The translations under genes were made by a program, and so were the position numbers. The notes under the pieces are model-generated. The model was not told the DNA's origin and ran no database searches. It saw only the letters and a program-made list of their open reading frames with translations. From assembly GCF_016907515.1 (NCBI RefSeq), contig NZ_JAFBBY010000001.1:3162001-3226000 (forward strand): 64,000 nucleotides of DNA. The letters are read 5' to 3'. The stretch's first letter is position 1. Each line of letters opens with the position of its first letter. This DNA is from Nocardioides nitrophenolicus. Lineage in GTDB: Bacteria > Actinomycetota > Actinomycetes > Propionibacteriales > Nocardioidaceae. This document shows positions 28,256 through 48,895 of this stretch, in pieces.

Positions 28256-29644
28256 TCACCCCAGGTACGCCGCCAGCGCCTCGTCCGCATCGACGCTGAC
28301 GAACCCGGTGGCCGCGAGCTTGTCGAGCGCGAGCGTGCTGTACAGCGGCCGAGGCGAGACGACCTTACCGGCGGCGTACTCCTCGGTGGTCACCGTGCTG
28401 ACCCGGGCCGGGTCGTGGCCGGTCAGCTCGAAGACCTTGCGGGCGTAGTCGGCCCACGACCGCTCGGTGCCGCCGTTGGTGACGTTGTAGGTGCCGTACG
28501 GCGCCCGGGTGGCGACCAGGTGGGCCGTGGCCCGCGCCAGCTCGGAGGTGAAGGTCAGCCGGCCGACCTGGTCGGAGACGACGGCCGGGTCGACGCCGTC
28601 GGCCGCGAGGCGGGCCATGGTGCGCACGAAGTTGTGGCCCTCGCCGATCACCCACGAGGTGCGCAGGACGTAGTGGCGGGGGGCGCCGGCGACGGCGAGG
28701 TCGCCGGCGGCCTTGGTCTGGCCGTACACGCCGAGCGGGGCGAAGCGCTCGTCCTCGGTGTGGCCACCGGAGACCGGGGAGCCGTCGAAGACGTAGTCGG
28801 TCGAATAGTGCACCAGGGTGATGCCGCGCGCGGCCGCGACTCGGGCCAGGGCGGCGGGGGCGGCGGCGTTGGCGGCCCAGGCGACCGGCCGGCCCTCGGG
28901 GGTCTCGGCCTTGTCGACAGCGGTGTAGGCGGCCGCGTTGAGGATCAGCTCGTAGTCCTCCCACGGCCAGGCGGCCAACGCCGCCTCGTCGGTGAGGTCG
29001 AGATCGTCGAGGTCGACCAGGGTCGCGTCGGGGAACAGCGGCGCCAGGGCCTGGCCGAGCTGTCCGCGGCAGCCGGTGACGAGCGTCTTCTTCGGGGCCA
29101 CCGGCTCGACCTCGCCGAGCCGGGGATTGGCGTGGTCCTTGGCGGAGATCTCGACGTCGGCTGAGTCGAGCGGGATCGGCCACGGGATGGCGACGTCGGG
29201 GTCGGCGAGGTGCAGGGCGGGGTAGGTCGTACCGGGGCGCCAGTGGTCGTTGACCAGGTAGGCGTAGACGGTGCCGTCCTCGAGCGCCTGGTAGGCGTTG
29301 CCGACGCCGCGCGGCACGAACACCGCGACGCTCTCGTCGACCTCGCACCAGTACGTCGCCCCGAAGGTCTCGCCCGCGCGCATGTCGACCCACGCGGCGA
29401 ACACCTTGCCGGTGGCGACGGACACGAACTTGTCCCACGGCTCGGTGTGGATGCCGCGGGTGGCGCCTCGCGTGGCGTTGTAGCTCATGTTGTTCTGCAC
29501 CGGGCCGAAGTCGGGCAGGCCGAGCGCCACCATCTTCTCGCGCTGCCAGTTCTCCTTGAACCAGCCGCGCTCGTCTCCGTGGACGGGCAGGTGGACGACG
29601 AGCAGCCCCGGGATCGGCGTCGTCTCGACGCGCAGCTCGCCCAT
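28256..29644 (-). CDS. rmlCD: Bifunctional dTDP-4-dehydrorhamnose 3,5-epimerase / reductase (RmlC-RmlD fusion)
   Basis: The ATG at 29644 gives 462 aa. Residues 1 to about 180 are an RmlC cupin ([25 protein letters not shown]). From about 185 there is an RmlD reductase with [10 protein letters not shown] for NAD(P), [10 protein letters not shown] and catalytic YGQTK. Together they turn dTDP-4-keto-6-deoxyglucose into dTDP-L-rhamnose. The fusion is known in several actinobacteria. It lies 2 bp after rmlB in the same direction, so the two are cotranscribed. Confidence 0.9.
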
Positions 29645-29646
29645 GG

Positions 29647-31566
<1,920 letters not shown>

Positions 31567-33132
31567 TCAGCCTCGTCGCAGCCGCCTGAGCAGCCCCTTC
31601 CGGGCGGGTGGCTCCTCGGCGGCGAGCCGGAGCAGCAGCCCGTCCTGGGCCGAGTAGTCGAGCACGACCGAGCCGACCTGGGTGCCGGCCGGCAGCTCGC
31701 TGAACGCGCGCTTGATCCCGGTGCGCCCGTCCAGCTCGCACATGCCGAGCACCAGGTGCGCGCCCGGCGGCAGCGCGCCGCCCATGGCGGCGGTGGCGGG
31801 GTCGAACCGGGCGGTGAAGGTGCCGGCCGGCTCGAGGGTGCCGTCGTCCTGCTCGACCAGCTCGATCCGGGAGGTCGACGGCAGCAGCCAGTTGACCCGG
31901 GTCGGGGCGTGCCGGACCGCCACGTCGACGAACGCGTCCGACACGTCCGCCGACGGGGTCAGGCCGTGCTCGGCGAGCAGGCCGGCGAGCGGTTCGGGGA
32001 GGGCGCGGACCACGGCGCCGTCCGTCGTACGCCGGGCGAAGGGCTGTCCCGGCACCGGGCTCCAGGTGACGGTGCCGGCGACCGTGACCCCACCCTCGGG
32101 CGCCTCCTCGACGGCGGTCATGACGAACTCGGGACGACGGTCGATGCCGTCGCGCAGGAAGTCGGCGGCGGCATCGGCGTGGCCGGCGCGGAACAGGGTG
32201 ATCGCGACCCGGCTGCGCTCGGGGAGCAGCGCGTCGAGCTCGGGCGGGACGTACGCCGCGAGCATCCGGGCGACCTCGGCCCGCGCCTCGGCGACCCGGT
32301 CGGCGTCGTCGTCGCTCGCGCGCTGCCCGAGCTGGGAGACCAGCCGCACGTGGACGTTCTGGGCGAGCAGCTCGTCGCGGATCGCGGGGTGCTCGACACC
32401 CGAGATCAGCCGGAACAGGCGGTCGAGATAGGGCCAGTACTCCGGGTCGCCGCTGTAGTCGAGCCGGGTCCCGTCGGTCGACGTCGAGTTGTTCTCCGCG
32501 GTCTTGCGCCAGTGGTAGAAGGGCGTCGAGCTGAGCAGCGCGACCCGTGGCAGGTGCCGGATCACGTCGACGTGGAAGAACAGGTCCTCCCACAGGTGTC
32601 GCGGAGCCTCGGGGAACCGGACGTCGTGGTCGACCAGGAAAGCGCGCCGGTACAGCTTGTGGGGCGTCATCGGCAGCAGTCCGCGCAGTGGCTCGGCGCT
32701 GGCGTCGGGTGTGTCGTGGGTGTACTGGGTCAGCCCCCAACGCGCGATCTGGGTGCGCACCTCCTTGCCGTTGACCACGTCGGCGCCCGCGACGTCACCG
32801 AGCGCGACCCCGGCCCGCAGCGCGTCGGGGTACAGCTCGTCGTCATGGTCGAGGAAGAGCACATAGCGCCCCCGCGCCTCGCGGACGCCGATGTTGCGCG
32901 GCCGGCTCGGCCACCCGGACGGCTCCAGGGCGAACGAGCGGTAGTTGGCCCGGCCGGCCGCGATCCGCTCGATCCGGGCGGCGGTGTCGTCGGGGGAGCC
33001 GTCGTCGAGCAGCAGCACCTCGAGCTCGGCCTGGGGGAGGGTCTGCGCGTCGAGGGACGCGATCGCCCGGTCCAGCCCCGGACCGGAGCGGTAGGTCGGG
33101 ATCACGACGGACACCGCGGGAGCCTCGGCCAT
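31567..33132 (-). CDS. Family 2 glycosyltransferase
   Basis: This 521-aa protein has an N-terminal GT-A fold with VSVVIPTYRSG, LLLDDGSPD and the metal site FLDHDDE, followed by LWEDLFFHVDVIR. The C-terminal half (about 300-521) is not catalytic and resembles the beta-rich extension found in large actinobacterial GT2 proteins. It ends in a basic tail, RKGLLRRLRRG. TAGACT 7 nt upstream of the ATG suggests a leaderless start. Adjacent rml genes suggest a rhamnosyl or other wall-polymer transfer, which is inference. Confidence 0.8.
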   Translation of the reverse strand: MAEAPAVSVVIPTYRSGPGLDRAIASLDAQTLPQAELEVLLLDDGSPDDTAARIERIAAGRANYRSFALEPSGWPSRPRNIGVREARGRYVLFLDHDDELYPDALRAGVALGDVAGADVVNGKEVRTQIARWGLTQYTHDTPDASAEPLRGLLPMTPHKLYRRAFLVDHDVRFPEAPRHLWEDLFFHVDVIRHLPRVALLSSTPFYHWRKTAENNSTSTDGTRLDYSGDPEYWPYLDRLFRLISGVEHPAIRDELLAQNVHVRLVSQLGQRASDDDADRVAEARAEVARMLAAYVPPELDALLPERSRVAITLFRAGHADAAADFLRDGIDRRPEFVMTAVEEAPEGGVTVAGTVTWSPVPGQPFARRTTDGAVVRALPEPLAGLLAEHGLTPSADVSDAFVDVAVRHAPTRVNWLLPSTSRIELVEQDDGTLEPAGTFTARFDPATAAMGGALPPGAHLVLGMCELDGRTGIKRAFSELPAGTQVGSVVLDYSAQDGLLLRLAAEEPPARKGLLRRLRRG

Positions 33133-35302: not shown

Positions 35303-35868
35303 CCGAGACCCCCAATCCGAACATCGTCGACGCGGACACGCTGACCGGCGAGATGCGACCGATCCGTCGGGTGGTGATCGCACTCGGATCCAACCTCGGC
35401 GAGCGGTTCGCGACCCTGCAGGGCGCCCTCGGCGCCCTCGCCGACACCCCGGAGGTCTGGATCACCGGCGTGTCCCCGGTCTACGAGAGCGCCCCCGTCG
35501 ACTGCCCACCGGAGGCCAAGGACTTCCTCAACGCCGTCGTGCTCGCCGACACCACCCTGCCGGCCCACCGCCTGATCGACCGCGCCCTCGCCATCGAGGA
35601 CGCCTTCGAGCGCGAGCGCAGCGACGTCAAGAACGCCCCGCGGACCCTGGACGTCGACCTCATCGTCGTCGGCGACCGCCGCAGCGACACCGACGAGCTG
35701 CGCCTGCCCCACCCGCGCGCCCACGAGCGCGCCTTCGTGCTGAAGCCGTGGCACGACCTCGAGGCCGACGCCGTGCTGCTCGACCACGGGCCGATCGCCG
35801 ACCTGCTCGACAGGGTCGACGCCAGCGGCCTCAAGCTGCGTGACGACCTGGTGCTCGAGACGGTGTGA
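35299..35868 (+). CDS. folK: 2-amino-4-hydroxy-6-hydroxymethyldihydropteridine pyrophosphokinase
   Basis: This 189-aa protein starts with about 20 extra residues before the core VVIALGSNLGERFATLQGAL. It contains VYESAPVDC, ERSDVKNAPRTLDVDLI and LPHPRAHERAFVL, the HPPK active-site segments. It pyrophosphorylates the pterin for FolP. It is coupled at both ends by 4-bp overlaps. Confidence 0.94.
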   Translation: MTETPNPNIVDADTLTGEMRPIRRVVIALGSNLGERFATLQGALGALADTPEVWITGVSPVYESAPVDCPPEAKDFLNAVVLADTTLPAHRLIDRALAIEDAFERERSDVKNAPRTLDVDLIVVGDRRSDTDELRLPHPRAHERAFVLKPWHDLEADAVLLDHGPIADLLDRVDASGLKLRDDLVLETV

Positions 35869-36386
35869 CGCGAGACCCGGTCCAGGAGCCCGAGCCCGAG
35901 CAGGAGCCCGCGGGTCCGTCTCCCGACGGGCTGCGGCCCACCGGCCTGCCCACCGTGCTGGGCTGGGCGGTGGCCGGCACCGTCGTCGGCTGGGCGGTGC
36001 ATCCGGTGTGCGACCGGCTCGGCGTCGTACCCCCGCTGGTGTCCGCCGCGCAGCCGCTCGCGCTGCTGCTGCTCGCCGCGATCCTCGGGTACGTCGCCTG
36101 GGTGACCCACCGCGCCGTCCACGTGCGCCGCGAGCGGCTGGAGGCCCACCAGGCCGTCAATCGGCTGGTCCTGGCCCGCGCGAGCGCCCTGGTCGCGGCG
36201 CTGGTCACCGGTGGGTACGTCGGCTATGCGCTCTCGTGGATCGGCGACTCCGCCGAGCTGGCCGACGACCGGATGGTGCGCTCGTTCCTCGCGGCCGGGT
36301 GCGCCCTGGGTGCCGTGGTGGCGGGGCTGCTCCTCGAGCGGGCGTGTCGGGTCCGCGACGACCCCGATCCTCCCCCGCGCATCTGA
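35865..36386 (+). CDS. DUF3180 family membrane protein
   Basis: The GTG at 35865 overlaps the folK stop and gives 173 aa. After a Glu/Pro-rich start there are about four membrane segments (for example PTVLGWAVAGTVVGWAV and ALLLLAAILGYVAWV). The folK-DUF3180 pairing is standard in actinobacteria (Rv3605c). Function is unknown. Its stop codon lies inside the left arm of palindromic element E. Confidence 0.82.
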   Translation: MTRDPVQEPEPEQEPAGPSPDGLRPTGLPTVLGWAVAGTVVGWAVHPVCDRLGVVPPLVSAAQPLALLLLAAILGYVAWVTHRAVHVRRERLEAHQAVNRLVLARASALVAALVTGGYVGYALSWIGDSAELADDRMVRSFLAAGCALGAVVAGLLLERACRVRDDPDPPPRI

Positions 36387-36435: not shown

Positions 36436-36518
36436 GGCTGACGCACTGTGACGGTTGGGACGAGTGTGACAAGCGTGTCTGCCGCGTCTCCGGGGTCCGG
36501 AGGCTTACCGTGCAAGAC

Positions 36519-37115
36519 ATGACTTCCCCTGTCATGTCCGGCAACCGCCGTCGACAGCGCTCCACTCGGGTCCTGGTCGCTGTCCTCCTCCTCGTGCTCG
36601 CGACGCTCGCCGTCGCCGGCACCGCCGTGACCGGCTCCTGGATCCTGGTCACCATCGCCGCCGTCGCCGCCCTCGTGCTCGGCGCGGCCGCCACCAAGAT
36701 CACCCACACCGAGCTCCTGGACTCCCGCCAGGAGGCGGCGCGCGACCGGGCCGTCCAGGCGCGGGCGTACGCCGACCTCACCGAGGCCCGCACCGCGGAG
36801 AACGTCGAGTTCGCCGCCGACATGACCGGCAAGGTCGCCAAGCGCGACGCCACCATCGCCCGCCTCGAGAAGCGCCTCGGCGACGCCGCCGCCGAGCTGG
36901 CCGACGCCCGCCGCGAGCTGGTCGAGGCCGGCGAGCGTGCGGAGGAGGCCCAGCGCACCGCCGACCGGCTCGCGAAGAGTCTCGCCGACGCCGAGGAGCG
37001 CGCCGGCCAGGCCGTCGTCCGAGTCGCCGAGCTCGAGGCCGAGCTCGACGTGCTCACCGCCCAGATCCACGCCCTCGAGGCCCAGGCCCGCACCCAGGCC
37101 CGCCGCCCCGCCTGA
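36519..37115 (+). CDS. Membrane-anchored coiled-coil protein
   Basis: The ATG at 36519 (198 aa) is preferred because TACCGT at 36506-36511 ends 7 nt upstream, the leaderless pattern of this genome. An in-frame GTG at 36510 has GGAGG upstream and would add three residues. Two membrane segments (about 18-38 and 44-62) are followed by a long charged coiled coil rich in Ala, Glu and Arg, reaching the C-terminus. No family was recognised. It opens the wall-polymer island and could be a scaffold, which is speculative. Confidence 0.65.
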   Translation: MTSPVMSGNRRRQRSTRVLVAVLLLVLATLAVAGTAVTGSWILVTIAAVAALVLGAAATKITHTELLDSRQEAARDRAVQARAYADLTEARTAENVEFAADMTGKVAKRDATIARLEKRLGDAAAELADARRELVEAGERAEEAQRTADRLAKSLADAEERAGQAVVRVAELEAELDVLTAQIHALEAQARTQARRPA

Positions 37116-37181
37116 TCCGTCGTACCCCCTCGGTAGCATCGGGCGACCCATCCGTCGTCGACCCGAGAGGACGCTGCCGCC

Positions 37182-40100
37182 GTGGCCTTCGACCGCGCCC
37201 GCGCCCAGCAAGGCCTGATCCGGCTCGCCAAGGCCGGACCCGGCCGGCTGCGAGGACCCCTCGGCCGCGCCACCCGCCGGTTCCGGGGTGAGTTCTCCGG
37301 GCCGCTGGTCACCGTGGTGCTCCCGGTCAGCGACGACGACACCACCCGGATCGGCACCTGCCTCGACTCGCTGAAGGTCCAGACCCACCGCAACCTCGAG
37401 GTGCTCGTGGTGCGCTTCGGGCGCCACGACCGGGTCACCGCGACGGTGCGCGAGCACGCCGCCCAGGACTGGCGGATCAAGACCCGGATCAAGGTCGAGC
37501 GGTCGCTCGCGGCGGCCCGCAACGCGGGAGTCGCCGCCGCCTCCGGCGAGCTGGTGGTCGTGGTGACCCACGCGGGCGACGACTTCGTCCACACCGGCCT
37601 CGAGCGGCTGGTCGAGGCCCAGACCCGGTCCGGCTCGCCGGTCGTGGTCGGCGCGATGCGCGAGCCCGACATCGCCGGCTGGATCCCCGACTCGGCCTAC
37701 GACGCCGCCCACCACACTCCCGTCCGCGCGACGACGCTCGCCGCCACCCCGGTCGCGGTCACCGACCTCGGCCTCGGCAACCGGCTCTTCACGAAGGAGA
37801 CCTGGCGCGAGCTCGGGCTGCGCTTCACCGACGAGTTCCCCGACGGCGCCGACGTCGCGCTCGGGATGCTGGAGCGGGCGCCGGCCTTCGACCTGCTGGC
37901 CGACTTCACCTACATCCCCACCGACCGCCGCGACGGCGTCCAGGTCGGCACCGTCCCCGACGTGCTCAGCGGCCTGCCCGACTGGATCGAGCGCAACGAC
38001 CACACCTGGCACCGCGTCGAGTCGCTCGGGCTGCCCGAGGTGCGCGACTGGTTCCTGTGGGGCGTGCTCGACACGGCGGTGCAGCCGCTGATCGCCGACG
38101 TCGAGCGGGCCGACGAGCAGCAGTGGCAGACCCTGCGCGACCACGTCGCGATGCTGCTCGACGCCGCCGACGAGCAGGTCTGGGCGCGACTGAACGCCGA
38201 GGCCCGGGTCAAGCTCTGGCTGCTGCAGGGCGGCCACCGCAAGGCGCTCGAGGACTTCCTCGGCGCCCGGCTGTTCACCCGCGGCAACCGGCCCACCGAG
38301 GTGCGCGACGGCAAGGTGTGGGCGCTGCTGCCCCACCACGACGACGTCGAGCTCGCGATACCGCCCGAGCTGTTCGAGATGACCGCCGACGAGACCCGGT
38401 TCCGCGCGATGCTGCGCGAGGCGCGCTGGGTCGACGCCACCACCCTCGAGCTGACCGTCTTCGCGGCCGTCGACTTCGTCCACATGACCACCACCCCGAC
38501 CATCGCCTGCGCCCTGGTCGACAGCGCCGCCGGACGGCGGATCGAGCTGGAGATCCGGCAGTTCCGCGACGCGCGCGCCAACCAGGCGCTGCGCCGCCAC
38601 CAGGACTTCTCCTGGGGTGCCTTCGACGCGGTGGTCCCGGTCGCCGAGGTGGTCGCCGCGAGCGCCGACACCGCCACCTGGGTGCTCGAGGTCGACATCG
38701 ACGTCGACGGCGTGCGCCGCTCCGGCGCCGTCCCGCTCATCGACGAGCAGGCCTCCGCCGGCTTCATCGGCCGCGACCACCTCGCGCCGCGTCCGGTCGC
38801 CGGCTCGGTGGTCGCCTTCAACCCGCGCTCCGACGTGGTCGGCCTGCGCATCCGCCCCGACCAGGGGCCACGCCTGCGGACCCTCGCCGTCGAGGGCCGC
38901 GCGGTCCGGGGCGTCATCGACCCCGCCGACACCCCCGTCATCGGCCTCCGGGTCACCCAGGGCACCCAGCAGGTCCGTGCCGAGCTCGCCGACGAGCCCG
39001 ACGGCGCGCGGTCCTTCCGGCTCCAGCTGCCCGCCGCGTGGACCGGACAGCGTCGCTGGCGGGTCGAGGCGCTCACCGCCGACGGCCGCGAGGTCGCGCT
39101 CGGCTGGCCCGCCGGCGCCCCCCAGTGGCTGGGGGTCGGCGCGGGCGAGGTGGTCGGCTCCCGCGCCCCCTCCGGCGACACCGAGCTCTACGAGGCCGCC
39201 GACACGCTCGTGGTCGACGACCTGTTCGTCGAGGGCCGGCGCCTCGACGTGACCGCACGCTGGCTGGGCCTCCCCACCCCCGACGCCCGGCTCGCCCTGC
39301 TCGCCCAGGTCGGCGGCGCGGAGGTGCTCGCCACCGACCTGCCGCCCGCCGCCGACGACGGCACCGTCCGGGTGAGCCTCACCCTGACCACCGACCGCTG
39401 GGGCCTCGGCGAGCGCCCGCTCGCCCCCGGCTGGCTCTGGCTCGCGGTCACCCACGCCGGCGCCACCACCCGAGCCCTCCTCGGCGACGCCGGCATCGAC
39501 CGGCTCCACCACTTCATGGTCGGCGCCGACTACTCCGCCCGGGTGGTCCAGGAGGCCCGGGTCGCCGGGATCGAGCTGCTCCCGCCGGTTCCCGTCGAGG
39601 AGCGGGTGCCCTACGGCCAGACCCAGCTCCAGGAGTGGTACGCCGACGCCGAGATCCCGCTCGAGCCCGACGCGGTCTACTTCCAGTCCTATGTCGGGGC
39701 GTCGGCGACCGACAGCCAGCTCGCGCTCCACCACGAGCTGCGACGCACCCGCCCCGACCTCACGCTCTACTGGGGCGTGGCCTCGGCCGCGTCCTGGGTC
39801 CCGGAAGGCGCCGTGCCGGTCGTGCTGACCACCCGCGAGTGGTACCGCGTGCTGGCGGCGGCCGGGCAGCTGTGCATGAACATCGACCCCGAGCGCTGGT
39901 TCCGCAAGCGCCCCGGCCAGCGGCTGCTGCAGACCTTCCACGGCTACCCCTCGAAGTCGATGGGCATCCGGATGTGGGACGCCAAGCACTACCCGCCCCG
40001 GCGCATCGAGCTCGAGCTGGCCCGCACCTCCCACCAATGGGACCTGATCCTCACGCCCGATCCCGACATGGACCAGTACTACCGCCGCGAGTACGCCTAC

Positions 40101-40751
40101 GACGGCGCGATCCACAACGAGGGCTACCCACGCGACGACGTCCTGGTGGGGGAGCGGGCCGCGGCCGTGCGCGACGACGTACGCCGTCGGCTCGGGATCC
40201 AGCCCCATCAGAAGGCGATCCTCTACGCCCCCACCTGGCGCGACGACCAGGCCACCAACTGGCGTGCCGCCGACGCCGTCCACCACCTCGACGTCGCCAC
40301 CGCGGCCCGCGAGCTCGGTCCCGACTACGTCCTGCTGCTGCGTGGCCACCGCTTCCACAACCCCGCCGGCGACGGTGCCGGGGCGACCCGCTTCCTCGAC
40401 GTCACCGAGTACCCCGAGATCAACGACCTGATCCTCGCCGCCGACGCGGCCGTGCTCGACTACTCCTCGCTGCGCTTCGACTTCGCGCTCACCAACCGAC
40501 CGATGGTCTTCCTGGTCCCCGACCTCGACACCTATGTCGGTGGCGTGCGCGGCTTCCTCTACGACTACGCCCCTACCGCCCCGGGCCCCCACGTCGACAC
40601 CGCCGAGCAGGTCGTCGACCTGCTGCGCGACCTCGACGGGCTGCGGAGCCGCTACGCCGACGACCTGGCCGCCTTCCACGCGCGGTTCAGCCGGTTCATG
40701 GACGGCCATGCCGCGGAGCGGGTGGCGGCGGCCTTCTTTGGAGACTCCTAG
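37182..40751 (+). CDS. Giant GT2 / CDP-polyol glycerophosphotransferase (TagF/TarL-like polymerase)
   Basis: This 1189-aa protein has an N-terminal GT2-like domain (about 40-260; VTVVLPVSDDD, SLAAARNAGVAAASGELV), a central beta-rich region, and a C-terminal CDP-glycerol/ribitol phosphotransferase domain (about 830-1185). The latter has LLQTFHGYPSKSMG with His920 and AILYAPTWRDD. Such enzymes build poly(glycerol or ribitol phosphate) wall teichoic acids. A CDP-ribitol synthase gene lies downstream at 45261. It is followed directly by a CTAG array and an ATPase gene. The nature of the polymer is inferred. Confidence 0.85.
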   Translation: MAFDRARAQQGLIRLAKAGPGRLRGPLGRATRRFRGEFSGPLVTVVLPVSDDDTTRIGTCLDSLKVQTHRNLEVLVVRFGRHDRVTATVREHAAQDWRIKTRIKVERSLAAARNAGVAAASGELVVVVTHAGDDFVHTGLERLVEAQTRSGSPVVVGAMREPDIAGWIPDSAYDAAHHTPVRATTLAATPVAVTDLGLGNRLFTKETWRELGLRFTDEFPDGADVALGMLERAPAFDLLADFTYIPTDRRDGVQVGTVPDVLSGLPDWIERNDHTWHRVESLGLPEVRDWFLWGVLDTAVQPLIADVERADEQQWQTLRDHVAMLLDAADEQVWARLNAEARVKLWLLQGGHRKALEDFLGARLFTRGNRPTEVRDGKVWALLPHHDDVELAIPPELFEMTADETRFRAMLREARWVDATTLELTVFAAVDFVHMTTTPTIACALVDSAAGRRIELEIRQFRDARANQALRRHQDFSWGAFDAVVPVAEVVAASADTATWVLEVDIDVDGVRRSGAVPLIDEQASAGFIGRDHLAPRPVAGSVVAFNPRSDVVGLRIRPDQGPRLRTLAVEGRAVRGVIDPADTPVIGLRVTQGTQQVRAELADEPDGARSFRLQLPAAWTGQRRWRVEALTADGREVALGWPAGAPQWLGVGAGEVVGSRAPSGDTELYEAADTLVVDDLFVEGRRLDVTARWLGLPTPDARLALLAQVGGAEVLATDLPPAADDGTVRVSLTLTTDRWGLGERPLAPGWLWLAVTHAGATTRALLGDAGIDRLHHFMVGADYSARVVQEARVAGIELLPPVPVEERVPYGQTQLQEWYADAEIPLEPDAVYFQSYVGASATDSQLALHHELRRTRPDLTLYWGVASAASWVPEGAVPVVLTTREWYRVLAAAGQLCMNIDPERWFRKRPGQRLLQTFHGYPSKSMGIRMWDAKHYPPRRIELELARTSHQWDLILTPDPDMDQYYRREYAYDGAIHNEGYPRDDVLVGERAAAVRDDVRRRLGIQPHQKAILYAPTWRDDQATNWRAADAVHHLDVATAARELGPDYVLLLRGHRFHNPAGDGAGATRFLDVTEYPEINDLILAADAAVLDYSSLRFDFALTNRPMVFLVPDLDTYVGGVRGFLYDYAPTAPGPHVDTAEQVVDLLRDLDGLRSRYADDLAAFHARFSRFMDGHAAERVAAAFFGDS

Positions 40752-40799
40752 TCGCTCCTAGACGCCCTAGACATTGCTAGACGTCCTCGATCGACCTAG
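40748..40799. promoter_or_regulatory. Helically phased CTAG array upstream of ATPase gene
   Basis: CTAG occurs at 40748, 40758, 40767, 40777 and 40796, spaced 10, 9, 10 and 19 bp, about one turn of DNA each. Three of the copies continue as CTAGAC. The last copy overlaps TAGCCT (40797-40802), a -10-like hexamer 7 nt before the GTG at 40810. The first copy contains the stop codon of the polymerase gene. It looks like a cooperative binding site for an unknown protein. Confidence 0.6.
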
Positions 40800-40809
40800 C
40801 CTGGCCACC

Positions 40810-41964
40810 GTGTCGAGACGGGTGCCCAATCCCTACCGCCCGGGCTTCAACCAGGCTCCGGTGGCACTCGCGGGACGGCACCGGATCACGGCCGCGATCG
40901 ACGAGGTGCTGGCGATCGCCGCGCTGGACGCTCGCACGCCGCGCCCGCTGGCGCTGACCGGTCCACGGGGAGTCGGCAAGACGGTCATCCTGGGCGAGGC
41001 GGCCTCCCGCGCCGCGGACACCTACGCGTGGCTGACCGCCCCGGTGGAGGTTCGGCCCGGCCGCCCGTTCCTGCCCCTGCTGGCCGACCGGCTGCTCGCG
41101 ATCCGCGATCTCTACCGGCAGGCCAAGCCGGGAACCCGGCTCCGGGTGACCGGCGCGACCGTCCGGGCCAGCGTGTTGGGGGTGGGAGGCGAGATCGCGC
41201 TCACGCGGGATGACGCCGACCGGTCCGGACGGCCGTCCCTGGAAGCGGCCCTCGCCGAGGCGTGCGCCGCGGCGGATGCCCTGGAAGCCGGCGTCGTGGT
41301 GACGATCGACGAGCTGCAGCTCGCGTCGAAGCCCGAGCTCGGCGAACTGGCCGCGACGCTCCAGGAGCACGTCCCCGACGACTGGCCCCTCGTCGTCCTG
41401 CTGGCCGGTCTGCCCAGCCTGCGGGGAAGCCACCAGGGGGTGACCTATCTCGAACGTGCGGAGTGGCACAGCATCGGCCTGCTGGACCAGGCGGACACGT
41501 TGGACGCCCTCCGCGTCCCTGCCGCGATGGCCGAGCGGCCGATGGACGACGCAGCGGCCGCACGCCTCGCCGCGGCCTCGGGCGGCTATCCCTACGCGAT
41601 CCAGCTGATGGGCCATCACGCCTGGCGCGCGTCCAGCGGAGCCCAGGAGATCACCACCGAGCACGCCTCGGCGGCCATTCCGGCTGCACAGGAGGAGCTC
41701 GCCGCCGGCCTCTACGCCGCCCGCTGGGAGGACTCCTCCCAACGCGAGCGCGAGTACCTCCGCGCCCTCGCCCAGCTCCTGTCCCTCGAGCCGAGAGTGA
41801 CGGGCGCCCAGGTCGCGGCCGCGCTCGGCAAGCCCGCCAAGGCCGTCTCCTGGATCCGCGAGAGCCTGATCCAGAAGGGCACGATCTTCCCTGAGGGAGA
41901 CTCGGTGCGGTTCACCATCCCCGGACTGGGTGACTGGCTCAGGTCGGGGAATGATCCGTCGTGA
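40810..41964 (+). CDS. AAA_16-type ATP-binding protein (complete)
   Basis: The GTG at 40810 gives 384 aa and has TAGCCT 7 nt upstream. An earlier in-frame start at 40774 lies in the CTAG array. The N-terminus PNPYRPGFNQAPVALAGR is the family motif, with Walker A GPRGVGKT at 51-58 and Walker B VVVTIDE at 162-168, then sensor-like LVVLLAGLPS. A C-terminal winged-helix-like region ends FTIPGLGDWLR. It is the intact paralogue of the gene at 9467. It overlaps the next sulfotransferase-like gene by 4 bp, so the two are translationally coupled. Function is unknown. Confidence 0.8.
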   Translation: MSRRVPNPYRPGFNQAPVALAGRHRITAAIDEVLAIAALDARTPRPLALTGPRGVGKTVILGEAASRAADTYAWLTAPVEVRPGRPFLPLLADRLLAIRDLYRQAKPGTRLRVTGATVRASVLGVGGEIALTRDDADRSGRPSLEAALAEACAAADALEAGVVVTIDELQLASKPELGELAATLQEHVPDDWPLVVLLAGLPSLRGSHQGVTYLERAEWHSIGLLDQADTLDALRVPAAMAERPMDDAAAARLAAASGGYPYAIQLMGHHAWRASSGAQEITTEHASAAIPAAQEELAAGLYAARWEDSSQREREYLRALAQLLSLEPRVTGAQVAAALGKPAKAVSWIRESLIQKGTIFPEGDSVRFTIPGLGDWLRSGNDPS

Positions 41965-43181
41965 CCACGCCCTCGATTCCGCCGCCGACCGAAGGAGCCT
42001 TTCCCGCGATGCGCATCGTCGACCTGCCCGACGCCCTCCCGGACGGCTCGCGGTTCATCCACATCGGTCTGCCCAAGACCGGGACGACGGCGCTCCAGGG
42101 CGCGCTCGACCAGGCGCGCCCCGAGCTCGAGGCGCTCGGTGCCCACAACGTCAACCACGGCCGGCACGAGATGAGGGTCGGCCAGGTCGCGGCGGGCGGC
42201 CTCGCCGAGTTCTGGCAGGGGTCGTGGGAACGACGGTGGGAGGCTCTCGCGACCGAGTTCCGCGAGTCCGACGCCCGATGCACCTTCTGGTCGAGCGAGT
42301 CGCTCAGCCACGCCAAGGGTGAGCGGATCTCCTATCTCGCCGACAAGCTGGGCGCCGACACGCACGTCGTCGTCACGCTCCGTCCGCTGGCGCCGCTCCT
42401 GGTCTCGCAGTGGCAGCAATGGCTGCGACGTCGCGGCACCGAGTCGTTGGAGGACTGGGCGAGCGGACAGTTCTCCGCCGTGGACGTCGAGGGCGAGGTG
42501 CACGTCGACTACGTGAAGTTCATGCCGACGCTCCACCGGTTCAGCCTGCGTCGCATCATCGAGGAGTGGGGCCCGGTCTTCGGCGAGGAGCGGATCGTCC
42601 TCGTCGTCCCCGACCCGGTCGACCGGCTGCGCAACTTCCGGGTCTTCGAGCGCCTGATGGGGGTTCCGGAGATCCTGCAGCCGGTTCCCGAGGGGAACGC
42701 CTCGCTGCCCTATCCCGAGGCGGAGATGCTGCGGCACTTCAACCGCGCCTGGACCGACCACGGCGGCGACCACCCCACCTGGATGGAGGTGATCGGCGTG
42801 CTGGCCCGGATCCCGTTGCGCGACTACACCGCCACCACCACCCCCCACCCGATCCGCGCTCCGCGCTGGGTCGCCGAGAAGGCCAACGAGTACGCCGCCG
42901 CCTGGAACTCCGCCGTCGAAGCCTCCGGCGTCACGGTGGTCGGCGACCTCGCCGACCTCGTGGTGGACCCGTCCGGCTACGCCGAGCAGGTCGATGTCCC
43001 GACCACGGTCGACGTCGAGAGCGCCGGCAGGTTGATGGACGTCGCCTTCACCGCCGCGCTTCGGCACGCGCCCGAGGCTCCGGCGGCGACGCCGCAGGCG
43101 CCCGACCTCTCGTCGTACGCCGGTCGCGAGCTGGTCCGCGAGCTCGGCCGTCGCGCCCGCCGAAGGGTGGCGAGGCGATGA
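41961..43181 (+). CDS. Sulfotransferase-like P-loop protein 1
   Basis: The GTG at 41961 overlaps the ATPase stop, giving 406 aa. An ATG at 42009 with GAAGGAG upstream is an alternative start. IHIGLPKTGTTALQ matches the 5'-phosphosulfate-binding loop of PAPS sulfotransferases, and LRPLAPLLVSQWQQWL resembles the 3'-phosphate-binding region. The C-terminus is a basic tail, RRARRRVARR. It is one of three related proteins in this island. Sulfation of a wall polymer or glycolipid is inferred and unproven. Confidence 0.75.
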   Translation: MTTPSIPPPTEGAFPAMRIVDLPDALPDGSRFIHIGLPKTGTTALQGALDQARPELEALGAHNVNHGRHEMRVGQVAAGGLAEFWQGSWERRWEALATEFRESDARCTFWSSESLSHAKGERISYLADKLGADTHVVVTLRPLAPLLVSQWQQWLRRRGTESLEDWASGQFSAVDVEGEVHVDYVKFMPTLHRFSLRRIIEEWGPVFGEERIVLVVPDPVDRLRNFRVFERLMGVPEILQPVPEGNASLPYPEAEMLRHFNRAWTDHGGDHPTWMEVIGVLARIPLRDYTATTTPHPIRAPRWVAEKANEYAAAWNSAVEASGVTVVGDLADLVVDPSGYAEQVDVPTTVDVESAGRLMDVAFTAALRHAPEAPAATPQAPDLSSYAGRELVRELGRRARRRVARR

Positions 43182-44014
43182 GCCGGCTCCACGTGCCCGA
43201 CGCCCACGCCGGGATGAACGCCTTCGCGGTCCCGACCTGGTGGGCCTCGCTCGAGGACGAGCGGGTCACCCGCGACGACGACGAGCTGCCCGACGTCACC
43301 CTGGTCGAGCTCTCCGAGCTCGCCGGGGACCGCACCCTGCTGGTCGTGGGCGCGGTCGCCGAGCTGCTGTCCGAGCCCACCGCGGAGGGCCTGGCCGCCT
43401 GGGTGGCGGACGTCCGGGCGCTGCACTCCGCCGCCGCGCCGGTCCACCTCGTGGTCTCTCTCGACGAGGTGGTCTCCCTCGACCAGCTGCTCACCCTCGC
43501 CGCCGGCCGTCGCTGGCCGCGCTTCGACGTGGCCGCCGCGGCCGCCCACACCGACGCCGACCCGGTGCCGCCGCAGAGCGTGCCCGGCGGGCAGGACACC
43601 GCCCGCGCGTACGCCGACGCGATCGTCGCCCAGGTCGAGGTGCTGCTGCCGCCGAGCCGGCAGACCGCGGTCGACGGCGCCGCCGACGCCACCGCCTGCA
43701 TCAGCCGCTCCCTCGACACCGACCCCGACCTCGGTCCCGCCGAGGCGCGGGCGATGCGCGACGCCTGCCGGGCCGCGCTCGCGGAGCTGGAGGCCGACGG
43801 GGTCGTGATCAGCGGTCCTCGCGACGCGCTGCTGTGGCCGGTCCCCGCCGAGCGCGGCCTGGTCCCGATCGATGTCGCGGCCGACGCCGCGCTCGAGGTG
43901 ATGCTCGGCCTGGTCGAGCGGCCCGCCGACCTCGCGCCGGACCGGCCGGTCGTCGTACCCGTGGAGGAGCTGCCGGCCCGCGTCCTCCTCACCCGACTGA
44001 GGGGCAGCCGATGA
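43178..44014 (+). CDS. Unknown protein between two sulfotransferase-like genes
   Basis: The ATG at 43178 overlaps the preceding stop (ATGA), and its stop overlaps the next start, so expression is tightly coupled. The 278-aa product has no signal peptide, membrane segment or P-loop. It begins MSRLHVPDAHAGMNAFAVPT, is acidic with alternating alpha/beta predicted character, and includes TLLVVGAVAELL and VHLVVSLDEVVSLDQLL. The last two resemble strands of a P-loop-lacking sulfotransferase relative, but this is weak. I do not recognise a family. Confidence 0.65.
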   Translation: MSRLHVPDAHAGMNAFAVPTWWASLEDERVTRDDDELPDVTLVELSELAGDRTLLVVGAVAELLSEPTAEGLAAWVADVRALHSAAAPVHLVVSLDEVVSLDQLLTLAAGRRWPRFDVAAAAAHTDADPVPPQSVPGGQDTARAYADAIVAQVEVLLPPSRQTAVDGAADATACISRSLDTDPDLGPAEARAMRDACRAALAELEADGVVISGPRDALLWPVPAERGLVPIDVAADAALEVMLGLVERPADLAPDRPVVVPVEELPARVLLTRLRGSR

Positions 44015-45234
44015 CCGCGCGGATCCAGCCGCTGCCCGATGGCTCCACGCTGGTCCACATCGGGCCCTACAAGACCGGCACCACCGCGATGCAGGGCGCG
44101 CTGTGGGAGGCCCGGGACGCGCTGGCCGCGCACGGCGTCGCCTATCCCGGCGAGCTGGCCCACGAGATGAACGCCGCCATGGCGCTCGCCCTCGGCCGGG
44201 TCGACCCCGGCAAGGACGTCGAGGCCTTCCGGGAGCGCTGGTACGCCCTGGTGGCCGAGCTGCGCGCGACGGCGCCGCGGATCGGGGTCCTGAGCAGCGA
44301 GGTCTACTGCGAGGCGACCGACGAGGGCGCCCGCACCCTCCTCGACGAGCTCGGCCCGCGCACCCAGATCGTGATCACGGTGCGGCCGATCGTGCGGCTG
44401 CTCGGCTCGCAGTGGCAGCAGTACGGCCAGAACGTCCCCGTGCCGCCGTACGCCGAGTGGCTGCGCGCGATCCTCGACCAGGCTGACTCTCCCGACGGAG
44501 GCGCGGTCACGCCGTCCTTCTGGCAACGGCACCGCCACGACCTGCTGGTCGAGCGCTGGGTGGGCCTGGTCGGCGCGGACCGGGTCAGCGTGATCGTGGT
44601 CGACGACCGCGACCACCGCGGGCTCCCGGCGGCCTTCGAGGGTCTGCTCGGCCTGCCCGAGGGTCTGCTCCGGCCGCCCGCCGACAAGACCAACCGGTCG
44701 CTGACGTTCGCCGAGGCCACGCTGATGCGGGAGCTGGTCGAGCGCACCTCGCAGCCGCCGTGGACCAGCGCCGACCACGGCCGGTTCGTCCGGTTCGGCG
44801 CCGCCCGGGGCCTCCAGGCCACGCCGCCCGACCCCGCGGCCGAGCGGCTGCTCACCCCCGGCTGGGCGATCGACCGGGCGCTCGAGGTCGGGGCCGCGAT
44901 GGCTGAGCGGATCGGTGCCTCCGGCGCGCGCGTGATCGGCGACCTCGGCCTGCTCTCCGACCGGGCGCTCGCTCCCGCCGAGGGCGACAACGCGCCGGTC
45001 GGCGCCATCGACCCGAGCGCCGCCGCGGCCCTCGCGGTCGGCATCATCACCAAGCTCACCGGCGTCCATCCGCGCCCCGAGCCCCGCGACCTCGCCGGCC
45101 CGGTCGAGCGGGCCGCGTGGTCCCGGCACCGCGCCGTCACCGAGCGCTGGGACGCCGAGCGCGACCAGGCCGGCGCTCGTCGTACGGCCGCCCGCGAGCT
45201 GGCCCGCCGCGCCCGCCGCCGACTCGGCGGTTGA
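44011..45234 (+). CDS. Sulfotransferase-like P-loop protein 2
   Basis: The ATG at 44011 overlaps the previous stop, giving 407 aa. VHIGPYKTGTTAMQ is the 5'-phosphosulfate loop, with VLSSEVYCEA and TVRPIVRLLGSQWQQY following in the same order as in the other two copies. The C-terminal 30 residues are very basic, ending ELARRARRRLGG. It is the third gene of a coupled run that starts at the ATPase. The acceptor is unknown. Confidence 0.77.
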   Translation: MTARIQPLPDGSTLVHIGPYKTGTTAMQGALWEARDALAAHGVAYPGELAHEMNAAMALALGRVDPGKDVEAFRERWYALVAELRATAPRIGVLSSEVYCEATDEGARTLLDELGPRTQIVITVRPIVRLLGSQWQQYGQNVPVPPYAEWLRAILDQADSPDGGAVTPSFWQRHRHDLLVERWVGLVGADRVSVIVVDDRDHRGLPAAFEGLLGLPEGLLRPPADKTNRSLTFAEATLMRELVERTSQPPWTSADHGRFVRFGAARGLQATPPDPAAERLLTPGWAIDRALEVGAAMAERIGASGARVIGDLGLLSDRALAPAEGDNAPVGAIDPSAAAALAVGIITKLTGVHPRPEPRDLAGPVERAAWSRHRAVTERWDAERDQAGARRTAARELARRARRRLGG

Positions 45235-45260
45235 CAGCGCCGCGTGGGAGACTGCGGGCC

Positions 45261-46667
45261 ATGACGAGGAATGTCGCCGTCCTGCTCGCCGGTGGTGTCG
45301 GGAGCCGGGTCGGACTGGACATCCCGAAGCAGCTGATCAAGGTCGCCGGCAAGACCCTGCTGGAGCACACCCTGCTCGCGCTCCACGACCACGTCGACGT
45401 CGACGAGGTGGTCGTGATGATGACGCCCGGCCACACCGACGCGGTCCGCGACATCACCCGCGGTGGCGGCTACCCCAAGGTCACCGCGATCCTCGAGGGA
45501 GGCGAGACCCGCAACGACACCACCCAGCGCGCCATCGACCACCTGGTCGCGACCGGCGACGCGGCTCAGACCCGGATCCTGCTCCACGACGCGGTCCGCC
45601 CGCTCGTGACGCCGCGGATCATCGGCGAGTGCTTCACCGCGCTCGAGCGCTATCCCGCCGTCGACGTCGCGATCCCGTCGGCCGACACCATCATCGAGGT
45701 CGCCACCGACGACACCATCCGCTCCATCCCGCCGCGCGCCTCGCTGCGCCGCGGCCAGACGCCGCAGGCCTTCCGGCTCGACGTGCTGGCCCGGGCCTAC
45801 CAGGTCGCCGCCGGCGACCCCGACTTCACCGCCACCGACGACTGCAGCGTCGTGCTGAAGTACCTGCCCGACGAGCCGATCATCGTGGTCCACGGCGACG
45901 ACCGGAACATGAAGGTCACCGAGCCGATCGACGTCTACATCGCCGACAAGCTCTTCCAGCTCACCGGCATCGACCTGCCCCGGGCCAAGGACGACGCCGG
46001 CTACCGCGCCGCGCTCGAGGGCAAGACCATGGTCGTCTTCGGCGGCAGCTACGGCATCGGTGCCGACATCGCCGAGCTCGCCCAGTCGTACGGCGCCACC
46101 GTGCTCACCTTCAGCCGCTCGACCACCAACACCGACGTCGGCCGGCGTGCCGACGTGGCGGCCGCCGCCAAGGAGGCGGTCGCGAAGGCCGGCACCATCG
46201 ACTTCGTGGTCAACACCGCGGGCGTGCTGCCGCGCGGCGAGCTCCTGGAGACCACCGAGGAGACGGTCTACGCCGCCACCGAGATCAACTACCTCGGCCC
46301 GATCTTCATCGCCCAGGAGTTCTACCCGCACCTCGCCGCCAGCCAGGGTGCGCTGCTGCTCTTCACCTCCAGCTCCTACACCCGCGGCCGCAGCGGCTAC
46401 AGCCTCTACTCCTCGGCGAAGGCGGCGACGGTCAACCTCACCCAGGCGCTCGCCGACGAGTGGGCCGACGCGGGCGTGCGGGTCAACTGCATCAACCCCG
46501 AGCGGACCGCCACCCCGATGCGCACCAAGGCGTTCGGCCAGGAGGCCCCCGGCACCCTGCTCGACTCCCAGACGGTCGCGCGCACCTCGGTCGACGTGCT
46601 CATCTCCGACCAGTCGGGGCACGTCTACGACGTCCGGAAGGACGACCCCTTCAGCCTCGGCGACTGA
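45261..46667 (+). CDS. Bifunctional ribitol-5-phosphate cytidylyltransferase / reductase (TarI-TarJ, Bcs1-like)
   Basis: The ATG at 45261 gives 468 aa. Residues 1 to about 235 are an IspD/TarI nucleotidyltransferase (VAVLLAGGVGSRVGLDIPKQ, LLHDAVRPLV, ATDDCSVV). From about 255 there is an SDR with FGGSYGIGADIAEL, SSSYTRG and YSLYSSAKAA. This fusion is that of Haemophilus Bcs1/Acs1, which makes CDP-ribitol from ribulose-5-phosphate and CTP. It would supply the polymerase at 37182. It is not the MEP-pathway IspD, given the reductase fusion. It overlaps the convergent gene by 17 bp. Confidence 0.85.
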   Translation: MTRNVAVLLAGGVGSRVGLDIPKQLIKVAGKTLLEHTLLALHDHVDVDEVVVMMTPGHTDAVRDITRGGGYPKVTAILEGGETRNDTTQRAIDHLVATGDAAQTRILLHDAVRPLVTPRIIGECFTALERYPAVDVAIPSADTIIEVATDDTIRSIPPRASLRRGQTPQAFRLDVLARAYQVAAGDPDFTATDDCSVVLKYLPDEPIIVVHGDDRNMKVTEPIDVYIADKLFQLTGIDLPRAKDDAGYRAALEGKTMVVFGGSYGIGADIAELAQSYGATVLTFSRSTTNTDVGRRADVAAAAKEAVAKAGTIDFVVNTAGVLPRGELLETTEETVYAATEINYLGPIFIAQEFYPHLAASQGALLLFTSSSYTRGRSGYSLYSSAKAATVNLTQALADEWADAGVRVNCINPERTATPMRTKAFGQEAPGTLLDSQTVARTSVDVLISDQSGHVYDVRKDDPFSLGD

Positions 46668-47787
46668 GCCGCGCGCGCAGCCCGCGCACGGGCGCGGCCA
46701 CCTCCGCCGGTGTCGGCCGGGACGGCGCGGCGACCTCGCGCGCCGTGAGCCGCTCGGCCGCCAGGGCCAGGCCGGCGCCGAACCACCCCGCGACCGCCGC
46801 GTCGATCGCCGCCGGCGGTTCGGGGGTGGCCGCGACGCCGCCGAGCGGGGTCGCGGAGATCGAGTCCAGGTCGCCGTAGACCGTCGCGCCCAGGTCCCGG
46901 ATCGTGGCGGCCATCTCGGCCGCGACCGCGTTGGCGCGCTCGATCGCCCAGTCCGGGGTCACGAGCGGGGCCTCGCCGGGCGCCGGCTCGCGCTCCTTGA
47001 GATGGTCCTTGAGATGGCGGAACAGCCGGACGTAGTGGTCCGGCGGGAGCCCGAGCTCGGCGTACCCGGTGTTGAACCGGCGCAGCAGCTCGGCCTCGTC
47101 GGCGGTCAGTGAGCGATTCTCGCGGGCGTCCTGACCGGCCAGGGTCTCGGCGCGGAGGCCGAGGAGCTGCTCGAAGGTGTGGGGCAGGAAGGCGTGGTCG
47201 CGGGAGTCGAGGACGACGACCAGCACCCGCTCGGCGCCGACATGCGCGGCCCACCTGCGCGCCAGCGCGTCGTGGCGATGCCGGTTCCAGAACTCCCGCG
47301 GCTCGGGCGCCGACACGTCGTCGGCGAGCACCATCCGCAGCCAGGCGTCGAAGGTGTGGGGGCTCTGCCTCTGCAGGCCCTGCTGGTACTGCGACGACAG
47401 GATCCGGGCCAGCGGTCGCAGGGTGATCGCCACCCACAGCTCGTCGGTGCCGAGGTCGCCGACGATCCGAGCGATCTGCTCGTCGGTCGCGTCGGAGAGG
47501 AACTCGCTGCTGAACACCCGACGCTCCGGCCCCGCCGCGGTGAGCGTGCCCACCACGGCCCGCCAGGCCTGCTCGGCCCGCGCGGGGTCCCGCCCGGCGA
47601 CCATGCGGTCGGTGACATAGCGCGCCGCCCGGGCGTCGTGCCGGCTGCGCGACGCGTAGTGCACGCCCTGCGGGCCGAGGTCCGCGCGCGCCAGGTCGAA
47701 CGCGCTCTGCAAGGCCGTGGTCCCGGTCTTGTGGGGTCCCACGTGCAGCAGGCGGGCGCCGGCGGGCAGGACGGACGGCGTCGACAT
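46651..47787 (-). CDS. Sulfotransferase-like P-loop protein 3
   Basis: The ATG at 47787 has TAGGCT (reverse strand, 47795-47800) 7 nt upstream, a leaderless pattern, and gives 378 aa. LLHVGPHKTGTTALQ is the phosphosulfate loop, followed by VFSSEFLSDA and TLRPLARILSSQYQQGL. The C-terminus is basic (GLRARLSRRG). It is closest in layout to protein 2 but encoded convergently to it. It marks the right edge of the wall-polymer island. Substrate unknown. Confidence 0.77.
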   Translation of the reverse strand: MSTPSVLPAGARLLHVGPHKTGTTALQSAFDLARADLGPQGVHYASRSRHDARAARYVTDRMVAGRDPARAEQAWRAVVGTLTAAGPERRVFSSEFLSDATDEQIARIVGDLGTDELWVAITLRPLARILSSQYQQGLQRQSPHTFDAWLRMVLADDVSAPEPREFWNRHRHDALARRWAAHVGAERVLVVVLDSRDHAFLPHTFEQLLGLRAETLAGQDARENRSLTADEAELLRRFNTGYAELGLPPDHYVRLFRHLKDHLKEREPAPGEAPLVTPDWAIERANAVAAEMAATIRDLGATVYGDLDSISATPLGGVAATPEPPAAIDAAVAGWFGAGLALAAERLTAREVAAPSRPTPAEVAAPVRGLRARLSRRG

Positions 47788-47983: not shown

Positions 47984-48895
47984 ATGTCCCCCAAGTTCAC
48001 TGTGGGTGTGGTCGGCGCGGGTCGCGTCGGCGCCGTGCTCGCCGCGGGTCTCCGCGCGGCCGGCCATCCCGTCGTCGCCGCCGCCGGCGAGTCCGACGCC
48101 TCGCGAGGTCGCGCCGCGGCGCTGCTGCCCGGCGTCGAGCTGCGCAAGCCGAGCGATGTCGCCCGCGAGGCCGAGCTGCTCCTGCTCACCGTGCCCGACG
48201 ACATGCTGCCCAATGTGGTCAAGGTCCTCGCCGACAGCGGCGCGCTGCACGCCGGCCAGGTGGTCGCCCACACCTCGGGCCGCCACGGGCTCGCGGTGCT
48301 GGCCCCGGCCGTCGCCGTCGGCGCCCGGGTGATCGCGCTGCACCCGGCGATGACCTTCACCGGCACCGCCGTCGACCTCGAGCGGCTGCACGGCTGCGTC
48401 TTCGGTCTCACCGCCGGCCCCGAGGAGCGCGCCCTCGCCGAGTCGCTGGTCGCCGATCTCGGCGGTCGCCCGACCTGGGTTCCCGAGGAGATGCGCACGC
48501 TCTACCACGCGGGCCTGGCCCATGGCGCCAACCACCTGGTCACCCTGGTCAGCGAGGCGATGGGCCTGCTCGGCGCCGCCGGGGTCGACGACCCGGCCGG
48601 CACCCTCCGTCCGCTGCTCGACGCGGCCCTCGACAACGCGCTCGCCCACGGCGACGCCGCCCTAACCGGACCGATCGTGCGCGGCGACGTGCAGACCGTC
48701 GCCGCCCATCTCGAGGACATCTCGGCCAACGCTCCCGACACCGTGCCGTCGTACGTCGCGATGGCGTGGGCCACCCTCGACCGGGTGGTGATCGACGGCC
48801 GGCTGCTGCCGATCCGCGCCCAGGCCATCGCCTCCGTGCTCAGCGCGTACGGCGAGCGCCGGGTGCTGCCCACCCCGCGGGTGGAGTCGGCGTGA
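47984..48895 (+). CDS. Rossmann-like and DUF2520 domain protein (Rv3603c-like)
   Basis: This 303-aa protein begins with the NAD(P) motif [17 protein letters not shown]. It has a middle region like ketopantoate/6-phosphogluconate dehydrogenases (LHPAMTFTG) and the C-terminal helical DUF2520 domain ([16 protein letters not shown]). It directly precedes and overlaps panC, as in mycobacteria, so a role in pantothenate supply such as ketopantoate reduction is plausible but unproven. Upstream lies a small perfect hairpin at 47878-47897 and a GAAAGG ribosome-binding site. Confidence 0.8.

What the first reader, a model, noticed from the sequence alone, without database searches (positions are those of the whole stretch)
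36519..47787. Island coupling a polyol-phosphate polymerase, an AAA ATPase and three sulfotransferase-like proteins
The island holds a 1189-aa GT2/CDP-polyol transferase, a CDP-ribitol synthase fusion, three KTGTT phosphosulfate-loop proteins, an unknown protein and an ATPase whose gene overlaps the first sulfotransferase. Gene coupling runs ATPase-St1-unknown-St2. I know of no described teichoic acid pathway with dedicated sulfotransferases, so this may make a sulfated ribitol-phosphate polymer. The block interrupts the conserved folK-DUF3180 to panC order. This is the best candidate in the window for an undescribed system.
Basis: partly seen in the sequence, partly recalled or inferred. Interest (0 to 1): 0.72.

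Follow-up and report, generated by a model that had tools for sequence, protein, structure and literature searches.

The report
Teichoic acid locus with predicted sulfotransferases
This stretch of a soil bacterium's chromosome looks like its main wall-polymer (ribitol teichoic acid) gene set, and three of its genes very probably encode enzymes that add sulfate to sugars, which suggests a kind of sulfated wall polymer that I could not find described.

The parts
31567..33132 (-). GT2 glycosyltransferase with TarS linker domain; likely wall-teichoic-acid glycosyltransferase, upstream of the folate genes
   Evidence: Pfam PF00535 E 1.5e-21, PF22181 TarS_linker E 8.8e-10; membership of the pathway is inferred
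36510..37115 (+). small protein with hydrophobic N-terminus and coiled coil (ATG at 36519 is the likelier start); neighbour of DUF3180 in relatives
   Evidence: present in every stretch with a DUF3180 match (10, 4, 1; some are the same genomes); only sub-cut-off coiled-coil-type matches; function unknown
37182..40751 (+). bifunctional GT2 + TagF/TarF-like polyol-phosphate polymerase (1189 aa)
   Evidence: PF00535, PF04464; PDB matches TagF 3l7i, TarL 8va1, Cps3D 8qoy; the only match over the whole PF04464 model in the genome, one other match is partial
40774..41964 (+). AAA_16 ATPase, possible C-terminal winged helix; insertion seen only in this genome, probably not part of the pathway
   Evidence: PF13191 E 1.5e-9, HTH_24 E 0.076; no hit in the stretches; nearest homologs 48-49% at unrelated sites
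42009..43181 (+). ST1, predicted PAPS-dependent sulfotransferase (start ATG 42009; GTG 41961 is the alternative)
43178..44014 (+). unknown protein (278 codons), perhaps a divergent sulfotransferase-like protein without the P-loop; overlaps ST1 and ST2 by 4 bases each
   Evidence: 8 of 145 relatives have it, in each beside an ST gene at this locus; profile score against the ST C-terminus above all 100 shuffles, but probability only 25% and nothing against the 3-row profile
44011..45234 (+). ST2, predicted PAPS-dependent sulfotransferase (modelled)
45261..46667 (+). IspD-SDR fusion: predicted CDP-ribitol synthase (cytidylyltransferase + pentose-phosphate reductase)
   Evidence: PF01128, PF00106; IspD half matches ribitol-5-phosphate cytidylyltransferase 6xhp, E 5e-33
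46651..47787 (-). ST3, predicted PAPS-dependent sulfotransferase, convergent with the synthase gene (17-base tail overlap)

Best explanation
The block is this Nocardioides-type strain's ribitol wall-teichoic-acid locus, with three PAPS-dependent glycan sulfotransferases that decorate the polymer. Proposed steps: the IspD-SDR fusion reduces ribulose 5-phosphate and makes CDP-ribitol; the GT2-TagF-like enzyme builds a ribitol-phosphate chain, perhaps with a sugar in the repeat; a TarS-linker GT2 encoded 3.4 kb upstream of the island's first gene may add side sugars; ST1-ST3, cytoplasmic and perhaps held at the membrane or the polymer by a basic C-terminal helix, move sulfate from PAPS to hydroxyls of the chain or its sugars before export and LCP-type attachment. 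Shown by computation: domain content, sulfotransferase fold (of ST2), conserved PAPS-site residues, an APS kinase in the genome, purifying selection, recurrent gene linkage. Inferred: that the polymer is the acceptor, the position of sulfation, the division of labour among the three STs, and the role of the unknown protein. The AAA ATPase is most likely an unrelated insertion.
Against: Neither sequence nor fold identifies the acceptor. 7 of 27 genus synthase loci and all 11 synthase loci elsewhere in the order have no ST in the 20-kb stretch read, so sulfation would be optional. 32 of 80 family loci from named genomes show neither the synthase nor a TarF-like domain nearby (several are short contigs), so the family also serves elsewhere. 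Five of the 24 high-scoring genomes (G035, G093, G095, G098, G106) carry the ST away from the synthase, and two Streptomyces genomes have two further ST genes far from it. Existing sequence models barely see the family: ST1 is below the cut-offs, ST2 has no Pfam match at E<=0.1, 18 of 53 members reach Sulfotransfer_4 at E<=0.1 (best 1.8e-4, bit scores not shown), NCBIfam gives nothing for ST1-3, and of ten distant or added proteins only one, itself in the 53, had a sub-cut-off match. Only ST2 was modelled. The text of a paper on ribitol wall polymers of S. griseus and S. antibioticus holds no word beginning with 'sulf' (PMC13274773, word search and passages); whether those strains carry the ST was not tested.
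Confidence: 0.66

Rival explanations
1. The proteins are true sulfotransferases but sulfate a different acceptor (a glycolipid, capsule or another wall glycan); they share the locus because it collects surface-glycan genes.
For: The folK-panC interval varies among relatives, with extra polymerase-like and GT2-like hits; 32 of 80 family loci show neither synthase nor TarF-like genes nearby; this genome has further family members elsewhere.
Against: In Streptomyces the ST sits directly beside the synthase (14 of 17) at another chromosomal site, and the link needs several changes on the tree; one shared hot spot does not explain both.
Confidence: 0.22
2. The KTGTT proteins are not PAPS sulfotransferases but P-loop proteins of another function (kinase-like or a different group transfer).
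For: No Pfam or NCBIfam match over cut-off where scores were shown.
Confidence: 0.05
3. The ATPase is a functional partner (regulator or motor) of the sulfotransferases.
For: It lies between polymerase and ST1 on the same strand, and a GTG start would give a 4-base overlap.
Against: No hit in the 30 stretches, which include four with the same ST1-unknown-ST2 run; homologs are widespread (119 of 145 at E<=1e-15) at other sites; ST1 has an ATG shared with relatives and its own Shine-Dalgarno; GC3 is lower than in called neighbours (0.89 against 0.93-0.97).
Confidence: 0.06

Closest known systems
Ribitol wall teichoic acid loci (TarI/TarJ/TarL type; Streptomyces ribitol WTA)
   Same: CDP-ribitol synthesis, a TagF/TarF/TarL-family polymerase and a TarS-linker glycosyltransferase
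   Different: cytidylyltransferase and reductase are one protein; the polymerase is fused to a GT2 domain; three sulfotransferase genes are embedded
GT + TagF-like capsule polymerases (PMC5974469, abstract seen; Cps3D 8qoy)
   Same: one protein joins a glycosyltransferase and a polyol-phosphate transferase
   Different: those make Gram-negative capsules; whether their loci hold sulfotransferase genes was not checked
Heparan sulfate N- and 3-O-sulfotransferases (NDST1, 3-OST; 1nst, 1t8t)
   Same: fold; P-loop and R-to-S PAPS site (motif roles recalled)
   Different: 12-16% identity, bacterial, acceptor presumed to be a polyol-phosphate polymer, basic C-terminal helix
Actinoplanes missouriensis wps-1 cluster (PMC13390465, passages seen)
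   Same: actinomycete surface-glycan cluster with two predicted sulfotransferases
   Different: Wzx/Wzy exopolysaccharide; a word search of the main text found no term beginning 'CDP'

Membership tests
PAPS-dependent sulfotransferase superfamily | sulfotransferase fold | tested here: met
PAPS-dependent sulfotransferase superfamily | 5'-phosphosulfate P-loop (KTGTT) | tested here: met
   invariant in ST1-3; K21-T24 at least 90% in 53 members
PAPS-dependent sulfotransferase superfamily | 3'-phosphate site, Arg and Ser eight residues apart | tested here: met
   R125 and S133 invariant in 53 members; aligned with R/S of PF00685 proteins
PAPS-dependent sulfotransferase superfamily | recognised by an existing curated sequence model (an aid to naming, not a defining feature) | tested here: not met
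   ST1 below cut-off, ST2 no Pfam match, ST1-3 no NCBIfam match
PAPS-dependent sulfotransferase superfamily | sulfate transfer from PAPS | not testable with these tools
   APS kinase present, no biochemistry
Ribitol wall teichoic acid pathway | CDP-ribitol synthesis | tested here: met
   IspD-SDR fusion, TarI-type match; product inferred
Ribitol wall teichoic acid pathway | polyol-phosphate polymerase | tested here: met
   PF04464 E 1.5e-77; TagF, TarL, Cps3D matches
Ribitol wall teichoic acid pathway | wall attachment enzymes (LCP) | tested here: met
   4 LytR_cpsA_psr matches in the genome, none in the window
Ribitol wall teichoic acid pathway | TagO/TagA/TagB and ABC exporter | not tested
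   not searched
Ribitol wall teichoic acid pathway | ribitol phosphate in the cell wall | not testable with these tools
   no chemistry of this strain

The most novel reading that the evidence does not exclude
Sulfated ribitol wall teichoic acids exist as an undescribed, repeatedly evolved polymer class in Nocardioides, some Streptomyces and perhaps Microlunatus. They are made by heparan-type sulfotransferases encoded inside the teichoic acid locus, in part of Nocardioides together with a companion protein that may be a sulfotransferase relative without the PAPS loop.
Probability: 0.58. Interest if true: 0.78.

Novelty: new variant of a known kind. Interest (0 to 1): 0.66.

Why it matters
Teichoic acids are already polyanions through phosphate; known decorations include sugars, amino acids and pyruvate and acetyl groups (recalled). 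Enzymatic O-sulfation would add strong, pH-independent charge and a recognition code like that of heparan sulfate to a Gram-positive wall polymer. In Streptomyces, variation in a wall glycopolymer decides which strains umbrella toxins bind (PMC13274773, passages seen), so optional sulfation could be a way to change a toxin or phage receptor. The prediction gives named genes in culturable genera for a direct chemical test.

Tried and rejected
ATPase-sulfotransferase link: several genomes seemed to have an ATPase homolog within about 10 kb of an ST-family gene (compare). Ten stretches were read. In the six that hold both (L072, L073, L076, L079, L080, L081) the ATPase is about 31-33% identical to the window's and sits beside an Fpg-like gene (recognised by eye), and the ST relatives are about 28-30% identical; the two closest homologs (G051, G025; L077, L078) have no ST-family gene in their stretch. 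Rejected as a system.

Sequence search of solved structures with the ST profiles gave nothing meaningful (E 0.28 or worse). A loosely framed paper search returned 73,436 papers and is uninformative. The searches that bear on 'not in print' were made, judged from titles, abstract openings and a few passages, all in an open-licence library that lacks most carbohydrate-chemistry journals; an older chemical report of sulfate in actinomycete walls cannot be excluded. The TarF profile that I built missed the divergent Streptomyces polymerase that Pfam finds, so the TarF counts are lower bounds.

Full report
What is there. The window lies in a complete 5.8-Mb genome (G000). Relatives placed in the same genus, G081, G086 and G067, have contigs of the same length as named records of Nocardioides albidus, Pimelobacter simplex and N. 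nematodiphilus, so the genus is Nocardioides in the broad sense. Between DUF3180 (35865-36386) and DUF2520 (47984-48895) lie: a coiled-coil protein; a 1189-aa GT2 + TagF/TarF-type polymerase; an AAA_16 ATPase; ST1; an unknown protein; ST2; an IspD-SDR fusion, all on the + strand; and ST3 on the - strand, its tail overlapping that of the fusion by 17 bases. A GT2 protein with a TarS linker domain and dTDP-rhamnose genes lie upstream of the folate genes (the folate genes and panC recognised by eye). PF04464 has one match over the whole model in the genome, the one here, and one partial match elsewhere. So this is probably the strain's main polyol-phosphate polymer locus, not a spare island.

The locus in relatives. 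Thirty stretches around ST matches, 28 of them from other genomes, were read. In four genomes (G034, G083, G014, G081) the same run polymerase-ST1-unknown-ST2-synthase is present at 73-97% identity, with ST3 at this site in three of them; three of the four have a further ST gene between ST2 and the synthase. The synthase occurs in 38 of 145 relatives (27 of the genus, own included, and 11 others of the order). In 25 of the 27 it lies within 14 kb of DUF2520; in G059 and G029 no DUF2520 was in the 20 kb read. In 20 of the 27 an ST gene is in the same stretch; in G035, G059, G015, G039, G011, G052 and G029 none was found, nor in the 11 outside the genus. The unknown protein occurs in 8 of 145, in each beside an ST gene of this locus.

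The ATPase. It gave no hit in the 30 stretches (19 stretches, 18 genomes, are this locus), nor in the stretches. In G034, G083 and G081 ST1 begins 9 bases after the polymerase stop, in G014 about 40. In the window ST1 has GAAGGAG 11 bases before ATG 42009; L038 and L085 keep the same signal, L036, L037 and L039 do not. The reported overlap depends on GTG 41961. The ATPase has homologs in 119 of 145 genomes at E<=1e-15, the best at 48-49% at unrelated sites. I treat it as an insertion.

Is the acceptor the ribitol polymer? Of 145 relatives, 24 have an ST match of 200 bits or more and all 24 have the synthase; 14 of the remaining 121 do. The threshold was picked after seeing the list and kinship was not corrected. 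Five of the 24 (G035, G093, G095, G098, G106) carry the two apart. The stronger argument is recurrence elsewhere. A scan of named genomes gave 80 loci (best 80 of 335), of which 44 carry the IspD half; in 38 of these, 37 titled Streptomyces, the ST match starts 1.3-1.5 kb before the synthase on the same strand. In the one such locus scanned with Pfam the order is PhoD-like phosphatase, ST, synthase, PF04464 polymerase, TarS-linker GT2, then a pyruvyl transferase on the other strand, between genes recognised by eye as obg and proB. S. coelicolor SCO2589-SCO2590 are named in print as wall teichoic acid genes (PMC3937824, passage); that they are the same locus is my recollection. On a tree of 104 rows the wall-locus label needs 11 changes against 31.5 in shuffles, 8 forced by starred branches, so several gains or losses. 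Against this, 32 of 80 loci lack both partners nearby, so the family has other uses too.

Mechanism. Cytoplasmic synthesis: CDP-ribitol from the fusion, chain by the GT2-TagF enzyme. GT + TagF-like polymerases in Gram-negative capsules make poly(glycosylpolyol phosphate) (PMC5974469, abstract), so a sugar in the repeat is possible. The three window STs have no strong hydrophobic stretch (19-residue hydropathy maxima 1.29-1.58), in line with PAPS being cytoplasmic (recalled); sulfation would precede export. Three or four paralogs may act on different hydroxyls or sugars. dN/dS of 0.08-0.39 for island genes against three or four relatives shows that they are maintained.

Novelty. Paper searches joining teichoic acid and sulfotransferase, the phrase 'sulfated teichoic acid' (none), or sulfate terms with teichoic acid or ribitol in Nocardioides or actinomycetes (without a sulfate term: none) listed no sulfated teichoic acid. 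A 2026 study predicts sulfated exopolysaccharide in Actinoplanes and says that bacterial sulfated polysaccharides had been reported only in cyanobacteria (PMC13390465, passages), although a sulfated capsule of marine Cobetia is in print (PMC11766843, listing). The library is open-licence only, so older wall chemistry may be missing.

Noticed in passing
window 31567-33132 (-): GT2 glycosyltransferase with a TarS linker domain, next to dTDP-rhamnose genes (28256-31548); may decorate the same wall polymer although the folate genes lie between.
   Followed up: partly
window 40774-41964 (+): AAA_16 ATPase between polymerase and ST1, at this site in this genome only among those read; lower GC3 than called neighbours, closest homologs 48-49% in G051 and G025 at unrelated sites.
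   Followed up: yes
L036:8609-9742, L037:8892-10025, L038:10593-11747: a further sulfotransferase gene follows ST2, about 48-50% identical to ST1; absent from the window.
   Followed up: partly
L072, L073, L076, L079, L080, L081: a second conserved site with distant ST-family genes (about 30% identical) near an Fpg-like and an HMG-CoA-lyase-like gene (both by eye); no Pfam match for the four of these ST proteins scanned.
   Followed up: partly
C-termini of the ST family (for example window 43119-43178): a basic C-terminal tail, alike in Nocardioides and Streptomyces; possible membrane or polyanion anchor.
   Followed up: partly
window 36510-37115 (+): coiled-coil protein with hydrophobic N-terminus that stays with DUF3180 in relatives.
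   Followed up: no
G000:C1:1169716-1170849, 847664-848644, 2938032-2939159: further ST-family genes elsewhere in the same genome, outside the wall locus.
   Followed up: no
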